NCBI RefSeq assembly: GCF_012275375.1
Contig: NZ_JAAZQJ010000003.1
Location: 310,001 to 374,000 of the forward strand
Length of the DNA: 64,000 nucleotides
Reading direction: 5' to 3'
Source: Dyella sp. SG609
GTDB lineage: Bacteria > Pseudomonadota > Gammaproteobacteria > Xanthomonadales > Rhodanobacteraceae
The position numbers and the translations under genes are program-made. The notes below the pieces were generated by a model that did no database searches, was not told where the DNA came from, and saw only the letters and a program-made list of their open reading frames with translations. How positions within the stretch are numbered: the stretch's first letter is position 1; each line of letters opens with the position of its first letter. This document shows positions 9,425 to 13,327 of this stretch, in pieces.

Positions 9425-10564
9425 CTATTTTTTTGGACGGGACAATCGCTGCTCGCGGTAGCTGGCCTCCATCAGGGCCGTGGCCAGCTCGCCGAGCTTC
9501 AGGTGATCGAAGCTGGTGTTGTTCATCACGATCACGCTGTGGCCGTCGTCCAGCGTGCGCCAGGCCAGCACGCGGAAGGCGCCGTTGGAGCCGTACTCCC
9601 AGGCCACGGGATGGTCGGCGCCATCAAAGGGCAGGGTCTGGGTGCGTCCGCCCAGGGCGTAGTTCTGCAGCGGACGTTCCACGCTCATCAGCGTGCGCGT
9701 GCTTTCCGGCGACAGCAGCCGGCCGCCGAACAGGGCATCCATCAGCACGAACAGGTCGTTGGCGCTGGCGTAGAAGCCGCCAGCCAGCACCATGAAATCG
9801 GGCAGGGGTTTGTCCAGCGGCAACACCTGCGGCGCCAGTTGCCGGTAGCCCAGCGCCATGCCGCGCACGGCGGACGAGCTGCCGCGATAGATGCCGCTGT
9901 GGCGCAGCGCGAGCGGCTGGACCAGATAGCCGTCCACCAGCGAAGCGTAGTCGCGGCCGGTGGCCTGCTCGATCACGGCTTTGACCAGCAGCCAGTTGGA
10001 GTGTGAGTAGTCCCAGTCGGTGCCGGGGGCGAAGCGCAGGTCGCCGCTGGCGAAACGGCGCACGGCTTCGGCATTGCTTAGCGACAGATCGCGCGTGGCC
10101 GGATCGCGCTTGATCGCTTCGTCGATCTCGTTCGGTACGCCACTGGCGTGGCTGATCAGCTCGCGCAGGGTGAGCCGGTCGCCGTTGTCGCGGCGATAGT
10201 CCGGCAGATAGCTGGAGATCGGCTCGTCCAGGGCCAGCTCGCCTTGCTGCACCAGCCGCATGACCACGATCGAGGCGATCCATTTGGAGATCGAGCCGGT
10301 CTCGAACGGCGTGTCGACGGTGAGCGGCTGCCGCGTGGCGGCGTCGGCGACGCCGAAGCTCTCGGCGTAATCCACGTGCGAACCGTGGCCCACCAGGATC
10401 ACGCCATTGAAGTGCTGGTCCACCGCGAAGCGCCGGGCCGTGGCGGCGCAGGCATCGCAATCGGCGAGGGCGGGAAAGGCGGCGAGCAGGGCGAGCATCG
10501 CCCACATCAGCCGCCATCCCGCGCGGCCATCCTTCTGCTTGTGCAACTTCGGCGAGCCATTCAT
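9425..10564 (-). CDS. serine hydrolase of the beta-lactamase class C fold
   Basis: This is a 379-residue exported penicillin-binding-protein-like serine hydrolase (DD-peptidase, esterase or similar). Residues 1-32 form a signal peptide (WAMLALLAAFPALA). The catalytic SxxK motif is SISK within TGSISKWIAS. The second motif is YSH in DYSHSNW, where most relatives have YSN, so the third residue is atypical. The start at 10564 is the ATG just before the signal peptide; the longer in-frame start at 10708 adds a low-complexity segment overlapping the neighbouring small gene and was rejected. The GH3 gene follows after 42 bases. The substrate is unknown. Confidence 0.85.
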   Translation of the reverse strand: MNGSPKLHKQKDGRAGWRLMWAMLALLAAFPALADCDACAATARRFAVDQHFNGVILVGHGSHVDYAESFGVADAATRQPLTVDTPFETGSISKWIASIVVMRLVQQGELALDEPISSYLPDYRRDNGDRLTLRELISHASGVPNEIDEAIKRDPATRDLSLSNAEAVRRFASGDLRFAPGTDWDYSHSNWLLVKAVIEQATGRDYASLVDGYLVQPLALRHSGIYRGSSSAVRGMALGYRQLAPQVLPLDKPLPDFMVLAGGFYASANDLFVLMDALFGGRLLSPESTRTLMSVERPLQNYALGGRTQTLPFDGADHPVAWEYGSNGAFRVLAWRTLDDGHSVIVMNNTSFDHLKLGELATALMEASYREQRLSRPKK

Positions 10565-10655
10565 CGGGGCACCTGGCGAGCGGGAGACTCCCGGTCGGAT
10601 GCCCAGCGGCGCGAATGGGTTTAAGCGCGCCGTACTGCTTTCGAACGCGTACCGC

Positions 10656-10796
10656 TCAGCGGCTGGCGGCGACGGCGGTGGTGGCAACCGACTCCGGTGC
10701 CGACGCATGCGTGGTCAGCATGCCGCCCAGGACCAGGGCGCAGACCAGCAGACCGGCGGCGAAGAAACCATGCAGCATGATGTTTTCGAATTTCAT
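10656..10796 (-). CDS. small single-helix peptide, paralog 1
   Basis: This 46-residue peptide is not in a family I recognise. It has a short charged N-terminus (MKFENIMLHG), one hydrophobic helix FFAAGLLVCALVLGGML, and an Ala/Thr/Ser-rich tail ending in AASR. It is clearly paralogous to the peptides at 10833-10976 and 12540-12683, especially through FFAAGLLVC and MLTT. An AAGGAGAG ribosome site lies six to seven bases before the ATG, very like those of its paralogs. It starts 36 bases after paralog 2 with no promoter visible between, so both should be read from the sigma-54 promoter at 11022-11039. It is probably an inner-membrane or secreted peptide; its function is unknown. Confidence 0.75.
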   Translation of the reverse strand: MKFENIMLHGFFAAGLLVCALVLGGMLTTHASAPESVATTAVAASR

Positions 10797-10832
10797 GACG
10801 ACTCTCCTTGATGCGAATGAAGCGGCAACTGC

Positions 10833-10976
10833 TTAGCGGTGGGCGGCGGCCACGGCGGTGGCGGCGATCGCCTGCGGAGCGGCGGTGTGGGTGGTCAGCA
10901 TGTTGCCCAGGACCAGGGCGCAAACCAGCAGGCCGGCAGCGAAGAAGCTCTTGAGCAGCAGGGTTTCGGCTTTCAT
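10833..10976 (-). CDS. small single-helix peptide, paralog 2
   Basis: This 47-residue peptide begins MKAETLLLKSFFAAG and has the hydrophobic segment FFAAGLLVCALVLGNML (residues 11-27) followed by an Ala/Thr-rich tail ending AAAHR. It is the first gene after a near-perfect sigma-54 promoter (11022-11039), with the predicted transcription start about 35 bases before the ATG. The ribosome site AAGGAGAGATGTC is almost identical to that of paralog 3. The three paralogs conserve protein and leader sequence, which argues that they are real genes. The helix could be a membrane anchor or an uncleaved or cleaved signal. I do not recognise the family and assign no function. Confidence 0.78.
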   Translation of the reverse strand: MKAETLLLKSFFAAGLLVCALVLGNMLTTHTAAPQAIAATAVAAAHR

Positions 10977-11021
10977 GACATCTCTCCTTGAGGTGGGTGT
11001 TCGAGGCTTTCGAGGTATAGA

Positions 11022-11039
11022 TGGCAAGGGTCGTGCCAA
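11022..11039 (-). promoter_or_regulatory. sigma-54 promoter, cassette A
   Basis: Read on the minus strand the site is TTGGCACGACCCTTGCCA. It matches the sigma-54 (RpoN) -24/-12 consensus TGGCACG-N4-TTGC, with the invariant GG and GC correctly spaced. It lies 46 bases upstream of the ATG at 10976. A second copy with the same core is at 12741-12758. Confidence 0.85.
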
Positions 11040-11047
11040 CCACGAAG

Positions 11048-11081
11048 ATGGCTCGCAGGCCGCGCCGTTGAGCCATTTCTT
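11048..11081. promoter_or_regulatory. invariant 34-base block with inverted repeat, cassette A
   Basis: This block is identical, base for base, to 12767-12800. It begins ATGGCTC and contains the inverse GAGCCAT after a 15-base spacer. It lies between the sigma-54 promoter and the upstream palindromes, at the same offset in both cassettes (26 bases from the promoter edge). It may be a binding site for an additional regulator or a DNA-bending protein. Confidence 0.6.
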
Positions 11082-11105
11082 GAAAACGTCGTGGCGGGCG
11101 GAGGT

Positions 11106-11139
11106 TGTCCGCGGACAGGCGGACGGCCGTGTCCGGACA
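11106..11139. promoter_or_regulatory. paired palindromes, putative enhancer-binding sites, cassette A
   Basis: Two perfect palindromes, TGTCCGCGGACA (11106-11117) and TGTCCGGACA (11130-11139), have centres 23 bases apart. They sit about 95-130 bases upstream of the predicted sigma-54 start, the usual place for an activator of the AAA+ enhancer-binding class. Two further GGACA half-sites follow. Cassette B repeats the arrangement at the same distances. Confidence 0.7.
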
Positions 11140-11350
11140 ACGAGCCGGACAGCGGACGCCGTCGTGCATGCACGAATCGGGCGCCGCGCCGATCGCAAGA
11201 ACAGATGGCCGCCGTGCGTTCGAACACGGCTTGGACGGATGGATGGCGCCAGGGGAGTTGAAGCGCGCCCAACCATGCCCATGTGGCAACCACCGATTGG
11301 CGGCGTGCTGCCGCCGGCCGGCTTCATCCCCTCACGATCAGGAACGAACG

Positions 11351-12322
11351 ATGAGCATCAGTTCCACTTTCGCCCGCACCGCCCTGTCCGCCGCCATCGT
11401 GCTCGGCAGCGCGCTCGCCCTGGCGCCCGCGCATGCCGCGGCGCCGATGGCCAGGACCAGCGCACCGGGCTACTACCGCATGATGCTGGGCGACTTCGAA
11501 GTGACCGCGCTGTCCGACGGCACCCACGCGATGGACGTCAACCAGCTGCTGGACCAGGCCAAGGCTTCGACCGTGCAGCAGTCGCTGAAGGCGGCCGACC
11601 AGACGCCGTCGTACGAATGGAGCTTCAACGGTTTTCTGGTCAACACCGGCAGCAAGCTGGTACTGATCGACACCGGCGCCGGCACCTCCATGGGCAGCGA
11701 CCTGGGCAAGCTGGCCGCGCGCATCAAGGCCGCCGGCTACACGCCCGAGCAGATCGACGAGATCTACATCACCCATATGCACCCCGACCATATCGGCGGC
11801 CTGGTGGCCGACGGCAAGGCGGTGTTCCCCAATGCCACCGTGCGCGCCGGCAAGGCCGATGCGGATTTCTGGCTGAGCAAGGCGCAGGAAGAGAAAGCGC
11901 CGGCCGAAGCGCACGAATTCTTCGACGGCGCGCAGAAGGCGCTGGATCCCTACGTCAAGGCCGGCCACTTCAAGCCGATCGCCGCCGACGGGGAGCTGGT
12001 GCCGGGCATCCGCTCGATCAGCCTCAACGGCCACACGCCGGGCCATACCGGCTATGCGGTCGAGAGCAAGGGCCAGAAGCTGCTGGTGTGGGGCGACACG
12101 CTGCACGTGCAGACGGTGCAGTTCGCGCATCCGGAGGTGTCGATCAAGTTCGACAGCGATGGCGCGAATGCGGAGAAGGTGCGCGAGCGCATCCTGGCCG
12201 ATGCGGCGAAGAATGGCTATCTGGTGGCCGGCGCCCATATCTCGTTCCCGGGCATCGGGCATATCGCGGCGGACGGCAAGGGTTACAAGTGGTTGCCGGT
12301 GAGTTACACCGAGATCCACTGA
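11351..12322 (+). CDS. exported metallo-beta-lactamase-fold hydrolase
   Basis: This is a 323-residue MBL-fold enzyme with a cleavable signal peptide (about residues 1-30, LALAPAHAA), so it probably acts in the periplasm. The zinc motif HMHPDHIGG (about residues 140-148) and the later ligands in GHTPGH and WGDTLH are present. The layout resembles the lactonase/quorum-quenching and related MBL hydrolases, but the substrate is not identifiable. The ATG at 11351 follows a GGAACGAACG leader. The gene lies between the two sigma-54 peptide cassettes and points away from cassette A; a functional link is only positional. A strong terminator follows 12 bases after the stop. Confidence 0.88.
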   Translation: MSISSTFARTALSAAIVLGSALALAPAHAAAPMARTSAPGYYRMMLGDFEVTALSDGTHAMDVNQLLDQAKASTVQQSLKAADQTPSYEWSFNGFLVNTGSKLVLIDTGAGTSMGSDLGKLAARIKAAGYTPEQIDEIYITHMHPDHIGGLVADGKAVFPNATVRAGKADADFWLSKAQEEKAPAEAHEFFDGAQKALDPYVKAGHFKPIAADGELVPGIRSISLNGHTPGHTGYAVESKGQKLLVWGDTLHVQTVQFAHPEVSIKFDSDGANAEKVRERILADAAKNGYLVAGAHISFPGIGHIAADGKGYKWLPVSYTEIH

Positions 12323-12334
12323 GTGACGTTCGAA

Positions 12335-12362
12335 GGGCCTGCGCGATGCGGGCCCTTTTTTT
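12335..12362 (+). terminator. Rho-independent terminator after MBL-fold gene
   Basis: The stem GGGCCTGC pairs with GCGGGCCC (one G-T wobble), followed by seven T residues. Confidence 0.88.
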
Positions 12363-12539
12363 ATGGGCGGATGCTCACCAGGCTGGTCATCGCATCCCTA
12401 CAGAAAAGCTTTCGTCCACCAGCAAGGGCAACAGCGGCGTGACGGAGGCTTCGTTGGACTTGCTCCAGCGCGTCCTGCCCGAGCCATCGCGAAAACCCTG
12501 CGCTGCGTGGACAAGGCTGTACATGCTCGTGGTTCCGGA

Positions 12540-12683
12540 TCAGCGGTGAGCGGCAACAGCGGCGGTGCTGGCGACCGATTCCGGGGCCGAGGCGCGCGTG
12601 GTCAGCATGCCGCCCAGCACCAGGACGCAAACCAGCAGACCGGCGGCGAAGAAACCCTTCAGCATCAGGCTTTCGACTTTCAT
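12540..12683 (-). CDS. small single-helix peptide, paralog 3
   Basis: This 47-residue peptide begins MKVESLMLKGFFAAG, with hydrophobic segment FFAAGLLVCVLVLGGML and a tail ending AVAAHR. It is the third member of the family at 10656-10796 and 10833-10976. It has its own sigma-54 promoter at 12741-12758 and an AAGGAGAGATGTC ribosome site seven bases before the ATG. The predicted start of transcription is about 47 bases upstream of the ATG. The bases from 12363 to 12539 downstream show nothing I can support as a gene. Its function is unknown; the shared regulation suggests the paralogs act together or in the same condition. Confidence 0.78.
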   Translation of the reverse strand: MKVESLMLKGFFAAGLLVCVLVLGGMLTTRASAPESVASTAAVAAHR

Positions 12684-12740
12684 GACATCTCTCCTTGCGT
12701 GGTTGGTCTTGCGTGCTTGGTTGGTCTTGCAAGGTAGATA

Positions 12741-12758
12741 TGGCAAGGCGCGTGCCAA
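12741..12758 (-). promoter_or_regulatory. sigma-54 promoter, cassette B
   Basis: On the minus strand it reads TTGGCACGCGCCTTGCCA, an excellent RpoN -24/-12 element differing from cassette A only in the spacer. It is 58 bases upstream of the ATG at 12683. Confidence 0.85.
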
Positions 12759-12766
12759 CCGCTCCG

Positions 12767-12800
12767 ATGGCTCGCAGGCCGCGCCGTTGAGCCATTTCTT
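12767..12800. promoter_or_regulatory. invariant 34-base block with inverted repeat, cassette B
   Basis: This is an exact copy of 11048-11081, including the ATGGCTC...GAGCCAT inverted arms, at the same 26-base offset from the sigma-54 element. Confidence 0.6.
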
Positions 12801-12824
12801 CAAAGTGCCATGGCGCGGGGCGGT

Positions 12825-12858
12825 TGTCCGCGGACAGGTGGACAGGCTTGTCCGGACA
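12825..12858. promoter_or_regulatory. paired palindromes, putative enhancer-binding sites, cassette B
   Basis: TGTCCGCGGACA (12825-12836) and TGTCCGGACA (12849-12858) have centres 23 bases apart and lie 84 bases from the promoter edge, exactly as in cassette A. Extra GGACA half-sites lie in and after the pair. Together with the other cassette B elements this accounts for most of the gene-free stretch 12684-13003. Confidence 0.7.
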
Positions 12859-13003
12859 GCCCGGCGGACAGCGGGCGCACGCTTTTTCGCCCGGCGGACC
12901 TTGCCGCCGGATAGTGGGGTCCCGGTCACGCGGCCCGCCGGCACGCCCCGGTAAAATTCCCCGACCGCAAGACGCGGCCACCGCTGAAAAGGAGTTTCAC
13001 GGT

Positions 13004-13327
13004 ATGCGCATCGAAACCGTCGATGAGCTGAAGGATCACCTCAGGATCCTGTTCGACGACCCATCCCTGAAGTTCGGCGACGACCTCGGCTACGGGGTCA
13101 CCTTCGACGTGCCCGGCAAGGCCCGCGCCGTGATGCTGTCATTGCAGGAACGCACCGACGCCGCACGCTGGGGCGGCGACGCGGGCAACTGGTTCTACAA
13201 GTGCGACGACGAGAACTGGCTGCTCTATCTACGCTCGATTCCGCATGCGGTGGTCTGCATTGCTTCGGTGAGGTCGTTGCATCGGAGGCATCTGGAGCAG
13301 TATCAAGGAAGCAATGCGCCGGTTTGA
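13004..13327 (+). CDS. hypothetical protein, 107 aa
   Basis: I do not recognise this protein. It is 107 residues, acidic in the first half (DELKDHLRILFDDPSLKFGDDL) with an aromatic-rich centre (GNWFYKCDDENWLLYLRS) and no signal peptide or membrane segment. The ATG at 13004 has an AAAAGGAG ribosome site at good spacing. The next gene starts 14 bases before this one ends, so translation may be coupled. It opens a run of small genes (13004-15061) whose sequence is less GC-rich towards the 3' end. An immunity-type protein is possible from size and acidity, but there is no direct support. Confidence 0.65.
   Translation: MRIETVDELKDHLRILFDDPSLKFGDDLGYGVTFDVPGKARAVMLSLQERTDAARWGGDAGNWFYKCDDENWLLYLRSIPHAVVCIASVRSLHRRHLEQYQGSNAPV

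What the first reader, a model, noticed from the sequence alone, without database searches (positions are those of the whole stretch)
10656..12858. Duplicated sigma-54 cassettes controlling a family of tiny one-helix peptides
Three 46-47 residue paralogs with the core FFAAGLLVC are read from two near-consensus sigma-54 promoters (11022-11039 and 12741-12758). From promoter to enhancer-like palindromes the two cassettes have identical spacing (84 bases). The peptides have no family I recognise. Sigma-54 control with a dedicated activator site suggests membrane-active or secreted peptides made under a specific stress. I infer a new small-peptide regulon; activator and role are unknown.
Basis: partly seen in the sequence, partly recalled or inferred. 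Interest (0 to 1): 0.85.

Follow-up and report, generated by a model that had tools for sequence, protein, structure and literature searches.

The report
Sigma-54 regulon of one-helix membrane peptides
Soil bacteria related to Dyella carry several copies of a tiny membrane peptide behind the same control sites as a drug-pump-like exporter, which suggests an unrecognised small part of a cell-envelope defence response.

Summary
In detail: three 46-47 aa peptides on the minus strand behind two sigma-54 promoters with identically spaced palindromes. They belong to a conserved, unnamed family, found in 83 of 147 genomes of the bacterial family. Of 96 peptide genes in loci not fetched by the promoter pattern, 79 have promoter plus palindrome, 15 follow another peptide gene in tandem, 2 have weaker promoters; control 1 of 602 other ORF starts.

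New here: a candidate activator. The same promoter module heads an operon of MacA-like adaptor, ABC ATPase, MacB/FtsX permeases, NtrC-type regulator and kinase. In 73 of 74 genomes with module and regulator on one contig, a module lies upstream within 40 kb, same strand. Other targets are further permeases and hydrolases.

Twelve of 109 peptides are 27-29 aa and end with the helix, so the helix, not a secreted tail, looks like the working part. Best reading: envelope-stress microproteins acting inside the membrane on the co-induced exporter or kinase, as AcrZ, VraH or MgrB do on theirs. Regulator binding, stress induction and peptide function are inferred. Ten paper searches found no description.

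The parts
10656..10796 (-). peptide A, 46 aa one-helix microprotein, second gene of the tandem pair
10833..10976 (-). peptide B, 47 aa, first gene behind promoter 1
11024..11038 (-). sigma-54 promoter 1, TGGCACGACCCTTGC
11106..11117 (.). proximal palindrome (enhancer-like) TGTCCGCGGACA of cassette 1
11130..11139 (.). distal palindrome TGTCCGGACA of cassette 1
12540..12683 (-). peptide C, 47 aa
12743..12757 (-). sigma-54 promoter 2, TGGCACGCGCCTTGC
12825..12836 (.). proximal palindrome TGTCCGCGGACA of cassette 2
12849..12858 (.). distal palindrome TGTCCGGACA of cassette 2
   Evidence: read directly; upstream sequence printed

Best explanation
The three peptides are inner-membrane, single-helix microproteins of an envelope-stress regulon. 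A histidine kinase with two membrane helices phosphorylates an NtrC-type response regulator. The regulator binds the TGTCCGGACA / TGTCCGCGGACA pair and activates sigma-54 RNA polymerase at TGGCACG-N4-TTGC. This turns on, together, a MacA/MacB-like ABC exporter operon that also carries the regulator and kinase genes, further MacB/FtsX permeases, some hydrolases, and the scattered peptide genes. The peptides then act through their conserved ~26-residue helix by packing against a membrane partner of the same regulon, most likely a MacB/FtsX permease or the kinase, tuning export or signalling. Shown here by sequence: the peptide family, purifying selection, the promoter-palindrome module, its near-fixed geometry, its linkage to the regulator operon. 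Inferred: binding by this regulator, induction by envelope stress, membrane location and partner.
For: Peptide and promoter go together: 79 of 96 genes have both, 15 are tandem followers, 2 have weaker promoters; control 1 of 602. The proximal palindrome starts -77 to -81 from the promoter in 87 of 91 genes and -69, about one helical turn nearer, in the other 4. In 73 of 74 genomes with regulator and module on one contig, a module lies upstream of the regulator, same strand, within 40 kb. Own genome: 4 exact module sites, two here, one longer peptide, one at the exporter-regulator operon. Operon domains over their cut-offs: HlyD_D23, ABC_tran, MacB_PCD, FtsX, Response_reg, Sigma54_activat, HTH_8, HATPase_c; HAMP just under. 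Nearest solved relatives: MacB and LolC, MacA, ZraS. rpoN present. Helix median dN/dS 0.26; tail 0.59 against helix 0.32 in the 67-aa class. 13 of 109 peptides are 27-29 aa; 12 show no tail-like sequence after the stop, L049 does and may be a truncated gene. AlphaFold2 gives one helix, confident in residues 11-20. The same module precedes other one-helix peptides in other lineages. In G027 an ISL3-type transposase part fused to the last part of the kinase (59 residues, 90% identical) stands right behind the module: the operon was there and was lost.
Against: No experiment shows that the regulator binds the palindromes or what induces it. Regulator at 78% identity or more (84 genomes) and peptide family (83) coincide in 81 of 147, but this follows phylogeny. 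G027 keeps a peptide with a promoter match of 0 mismatches though the operon is lost. In G159 no listed module lies within 40 kb of the regulator. Of the 61 genomes with neither, 54 still hold a 67-77% regulator, so the exporter can do without this peptide family. Peptide loci are not next to exporter genes. The dN/dS genes were picked by a peptide pattern and the pairs by 75% helix identity or more, both of which lower dN. The palindrome alone is not enriched at one mismatch. The kinase's second hydrophobic stretch is weak.
Confidence: 0.55

Rival explanations
1. General membrane-stress peptides: small helices that insert into the bilayer and change its state or the cell's metabolism under stress without one specific partner. 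YohP may be of this kind (PMC12719787: title, start of abstract and passages seen only).
For: Several copies per genome (up to 10 matches, G135), bare-helix forms, unrelated one-helix peptides behind the same module in another family.
Against: Residue-level conservation inside the helix (invariant M1, E4, L8, M26 in 27 sequences) and low dN/dS (with its selection bias) point to specific contacts.
Confidence: 0.22
2. Secreted peptides: the conserved helix is a leader, the variable tail is the exported product, and the MacA/MacB-like pump exports it.
For: Helix conserved, tail more variable; shared promoter module with an exporter; the long class ends in a conserved two-cysteine motif and 11 of the 58 stretches have an M16-peptidase-like ORF nearby (one of them checked by Pfam).
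Against: 12 of 109 members have no tail to release. No adaptor, ATPase or permease match among neighbouring ORFs at E 1e-10.
Confidence: 0.12
3. The activator is another sigma-54 enhancer-binding protein, not the regulator in the exporter operon.
For: The own genome has nine strong Sigma54_activat matches, the candidate among them; G027 keeps the peptide with only four other activators.
Against: The module sits upstream of this regulator's operon in 73 of 74 genomes, also in genera without the peptide family. In G027 the operon was evidently lost, probably not long ago.
Confidence: 0.12
4. Self-limiting toxins (small hydrophobic peptides that depolarise the membrane).
For: Size and hydrophobicity.
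Against: No Rfam match in 10400-13100 at gathering score; tandem copies under an activator-dependent promoter; recurring neighbours looked like ordinary genes (read by eye).
Confidence: 0.05

Closest known systems
AcrZ, small membrane protein of the AcrAB efflux pump of E. coli
   Same: small membrane protein that stimulates an efflux pump (passage in PMC12719787)
   Different: no Pfam or NCBIfam family over its cut-off for the window peptides; promoter shared here with a MacB-type ABC exporter, not RND; several copies; sigma-54 control
VraH of the Staphylococcus VraDEH system
   Same: small membrane protein that interacts with and modulates a MacB/BceAB-superfamily ABC transporter (passage in PMC5985334)
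   Different: VraH has two helices; here one helix, Gram-negative, genes not next to the exporter
MgrB, small inhibitor of the PhoQ kinase
   Same: small membrane protein acting on a sensor kinase (passage in PMC12719787); feedback within its own regulon and its cysteines are recalled
   Different: no family match; feedback untested; short and bare classes lack the C-terminal cysteine pair
MacAB-TolC pump and YknXYZ
   Same: MacA-like adaptor and MacB_PCD/FtsX permeases
   Different: unlike MacB, ATPase is a separate protein; several permeases per operon; NtrC-type regulator and kinase at the end of the operon
GlrR/QseF
   Same: NtrC-type regulator, sigma-54, TGTC...GACA half-sites
   Different: QseF consensus is TGTC-N10-GACA (passage in PMC8745638); here N2 and N4. 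Regulator scores 295.8 against the GlrR cut-off of 763

Membership tests
sigma-54-dependent promoter | GG at -24 and GC at -12 with 10 bases between, consensus TGGCACG-N4-TTGC | tested here: met
   both window promoters match exactly; rpoN present
sigma-54-dependent promoter | upstream activator site with helical phasing | tested here: met
   palindrome at -77..-81 in 87 of 91, -69 in 4
sigma-54-dependent promoter | rpoN-dependent transcript | not testable with these tools
   needs an rpoN mutant and RNA data
AcrZ, MgrB or other named small membrane protein families | sequence match to a curated model | tested here: not met
   no family over its cut-off in Pfam or NCBIfam up to E 10 for the three window peptides (one sub-threshold Pfam hit to PufX, 12.9 against 25 bits); none in NCBIfam up to E 0.01 for four further peptides
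AcrZ/VraH-type exporter accessory | physical contact with the transporter | not testable with these tools
   only a shared promoter module is shown
MacAB-type exporter (the operon with the same module) | MacA-like adaptor and MacB_PCD + FtsX permease | tested here: met
MacAB-type exporter (the operon with the same module) | ATPase fused to the permease | tested here: not met
   ABC_tran is a separate protein, 244 aa as I cut it
MacAB-type exporter (the operon with the same module) | TolC in the same regulon | tested here: inconclusive
   full module before a PCM gene in G081 only (L066); own PCM-TolC pair has the palindrome but I see no good sigma-54 promoter
GlrR/QseF regulator | binding site TGTC-N10-GACA and GlrR model score | tested here: not met
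   N2/N4 spacing; 295.8 against 763 bits
PrsR (PEP-CTERM regulator) | TIGR02915 cut-off | tested here: not met
   340 against 502.6 bits

The most novel reading that the evidence does not exclude
A family of multi-copy bacterial microproteins whose whole activity is a ~26-residue helix, used as an interchangeable regulatory subunit of a MacB-type mechanotransmission exporter and/or its two-helix kinase, with tails from nothing to a two-cysteine redox loop tuning each copy; unrelated one-helix peptides have been recruited behind the same promoter module in other lineages.
Probability: 0.3. Interest if true: 0.75.

Novelty: new variant of a known kind. Interest (0 to 1): 0.6.

Why it matters
Small stress-induced membrane proteins are common, yet few have a known partner. 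Here the peptide, a candidate activator, its DNA site and the exporter that shares it are all named from sequence, in culturable bacteria, so the question what a tiny membrane peptide does becomes a short list of ordinary tests. The natural series from bare helix (27 aa) to helix plus two-cysteine tail (73 aa) is a ready-made set of variants for asking what a single transmembrane helix can do.

Tried and rejected
Membership in a named family: Pfam and NCBIfam gave nothing over a cut-off, PHROGs only hits at E 0.11-0.25. A wide range across the class: 4 of 369 genomes matched, the own genome and three weak partial hits that I treat as chance. A PspF-like activator: one of the own receiver-less activators lies by a phage-tail-sheath gene with a sigma-54 promoter lacking the palindrome. 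Functional RNA: no Rfam match at gathering score, and coding selection is visible. Exporter genes beside the peptides: among ORFs of 56 fetched loci plus two own-genome stretches, no adaptor, ATPase, permease, regulator, TolC or DUF885 match at E 1e-10; one kinase-like (L104) and one PCM-like gene (L099) matched. Own PCM-TolC as a sure target: palindrome exact, no good promoter seen. An IHF site as a general feature: consensus in 11 of 26 long-class, 2 of 55 short-class and 1 of 10 bare promoters against shuffle rates of 0.35, 0.15 and 0.15%; common only in the long class. G027 as a counterexample to the activator: it turned out to be a lost operon. Literature: ten searches found no description (search listings); passages seen of PMC3162934, PMC12719787, PMC8745638 and PMC5985334; no paper was read whole. 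My first promoter script had an index error and was redone.
Full report
What is there. On the minus strand of 10656-12858 lie three one-helix peptides of 46-47 residues. Two are in tandem behind the promoter at 11038-11024, one is behind the promoter at 12757-12743. Beside and between the cassettes are a beta-lactamase-family gene (9428-10564, -) and a metallo-beta-lactamase-fold gene (11351-12319, +), which I do not count as part of them.

Organism. The window lies in a 5.1-Mb genome. Genomes of the same genus have contigs of the same length as records of Dyella marensis, Dyella sp. OK004 and Dyella subtropica, so the genus is very probably Dyella (inference).

Peptide family. A relatives search found matches in 45 of 61 genomes at E up to 1; those below E 0.05 are all in the own family. 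A 27-sequence model finds the family at E up to 1e-4 in 83 of 147 genomes of the bacterial family (G006 is weak at 3e-5) and at E up to 0.01 in 4 of 369 genomes of the class, the own genome and three weak partial hits. Titles of the 56 named loci are mostly Dyella and Rhodanobacter, with Luteibacter, Frateuria, Fulvimonas and a few unplaced or oddly labelled assemblies. Invariant in the 27 sequences are M1, E4, L8 and M26. Lengths of the 109 distinct genes collected run from 27 to 73 aa. Thirteen are 27-29 aa; in 12 of them nothing like a tail follows the stop, while in L049 something tail-like does, so that one may be a truncated gene. A longer class ends in a motif like C-x-LPPDGVVCPR. Median dN/dS in the helix is 0.26 over 1029 pairs; in 17 genes of 67 aa it is 0.32 for the helix and 0.59 for the tail. 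Both the gene pattern and the pair filter (75% helix identity or more) lower dN, so the figures are rough. AlphaFold2 on 22 sequences gives one helix, confident in the first part (mean pLDDT 93 for residues 11-20) and poor in the tail.

Promoter module. I left out the 13 genes first seen in loci fetched by the module pattern (L065-L094). Of the other 96, 79 have the promoter (up to one mismatch) and the proximal palindrome (up to two); 15 follow another peptide gene by 11-113 nt; the last two have promoters with two and three mismatches. The control, other ORF starts in the same loci, gives 1 of 602. Over all 91 genes with both elements the palindrome starts -77 to -81 from the promoter in 87 and -69 in 4, a shift close to one helical turn. 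The combined pattern is found in 110 of 147 family genomes, with no reversed-pattern hit, and in 49 of 250 genomes of the order, two of them among the 198 outside the family. In those two it precedes an unrelated 55-aa one-helix peptide. The palindrome alone, one mismatch allowed, is not enriched in the own genome.

Rest of the regulon. Fifty loci with the module were read for the next gene; L154/L076 and L170/L067 are the same sites, so 48 sites. My tally: 21 peptides (19 flagged by the script, plus L079 and L089 read by eye), 10 MacB/FtsX permeases, 6 adaptor-led exporter operons, 4 alpha/beta hydrolases, one DUF4440 protein, one trypsin-like protein, one PCM gene, one relic (G027), three unassigned. 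In one search I took 28 genomes: 25 negative for the peptide family, G006 weakly positive, G571 and G577 not searched with the model. Of 39 printed places 30 loci were read (L065 and L066 are in both tallies): 16 rows for the adaptor-led operon (L221 and L243 overlap), six other one-helix peptides (L219, L223, L227, L228, L211, L212), three DUF885 proteins, one each of beta-lactamase family, permease and PCM, two unclear. Pfam was run on some of these target genes; the others I named by reading the printed starts. L223, L227 and L228 end in a C...DGVVCP- or C...DYVICP-like motif, and L223 and L228 lie upstream of a SpoU-type methylase; an ORF of the same look recurs at 11 of the 58 stretches, among them long-class loci. 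So the exporter operon with this module is the wider feature, and peptides of this size recur with it.

Candidate activator. In the own genome the module at G000:C4:347688 heads a run of adaptor, ABC ATPase and a series of FtsX/MacB permeases, then a DUF885 gene, an NtrC-type response regulator, a 102-aa protein and a histidine kinase, all on one strand, with a DUF3857 protein predicted on the other strand between permeases and DUF885. Seventy-four have both on one contig, and in 73 of these the module is upstream, same strand, within 40 kb, median 15.1 kb; the exception is G159; 11 pairs lie on different contigs. About four sites per 4.5-Mb genome would give a chance near 2% (my estimate). 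A regulator of 78% identity or more is in 84 of 147 genomes, the peptide family in 83, both in 81, neither in 61; 54 of those 61 hold a regulator of 67-77%. This is confounded by phylogeny. None of the 25 NCBIfam models shown, of 101 that matched, is reached at its cut-off.

A case against, and what it became. G027 has a peptide with a promoter of 0 mismatches (palindrome 2 mismatches) but no ortholog of the regulator; of its four activators three match other own-genome activators (69-81%) and one none closely. Behind the same aldo/keto reductase gene as in the own genome (76% identical) the module is still there, but the next gene joins an ISL3-type transposase part to the end of the kinase (59 residues, 90% identical to the own kinase). 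Everything from adaptor to most of the kinase is gone. I read this as a loss linked to an insertion element, with the peptide left behind.

Mechanism. The kinase has two hydrophobic stretches, the second weak, and a short loop between, which fits kinases that sense within the membrane or through a partner (recalled). Regulated hydrolases and a MacB-type exporter suggest defence against peptides or other compounds acting at the envelope (inference). The peptide most likely packs against a permease or the kinase; precedents are AcrZ and MgrB (PMC12719787, passage) and VraH, which modulates a MacB-superfamily transporter (PMC5985334, passage). Weights: regulator is the activator about 0.85; the peptide stays in the membrane about 0.85; it acts on the exporter or kinase about 0.5.

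Verdict. A real, conserved, sigma-54-type family of microproteins with a named candidate activator and an exporter behind the same control sites; a new variant of a known kind (stress-linked small membrane proteins), function open but directly testable.

Noticed in passing
G000:C7:50000-57000 (L058): Receiver-less PspF-like activator (328 aa) followed on the same strand by a sigma-54 promoter TGGCACGGCGCTTGC (no palindrome), a small ORF and a phage-tail-sheath gene (Pfam): a possibly sigma-54-controlled contractile cluster.
   Followed up: partly
L170:7322-8300 (G027): Module left where the exporter-regulator operon stood, now facing a gene that joins an ISL3 transposase part to the tail of the histidine kinase.
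   Followed up: yes
promoter regions of short-class peptides, between palindrome and promoter: A conserved element like GAAATGGCTTGGNAATGCGG, with a similar one in L211/L212 of another family; long-class promoters instead often carry an IHF consensus (11 of 26).
   Followed up: partly
L064:16158-16463: 102-aa protein of no Pfam family between regulator and kinase genes.
   Followed up: no
L061:4948-4959: Exact TGTCCGCGGACA upstream of the PCM-TolC gene pair in the own genome, without a clear sigma-54 promoter; in G081 (L066) a full module precedes PCM.
   Followed up: partly
L109: An assembly titled Candidatus Eremiobacteraeota carries a typical member of this family with its module; the label or binning is probably wrong.
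   Followed up: no
window 13004-13324: 107-aa protein without a Pfam match next to cassette 2.
   Followed up: no
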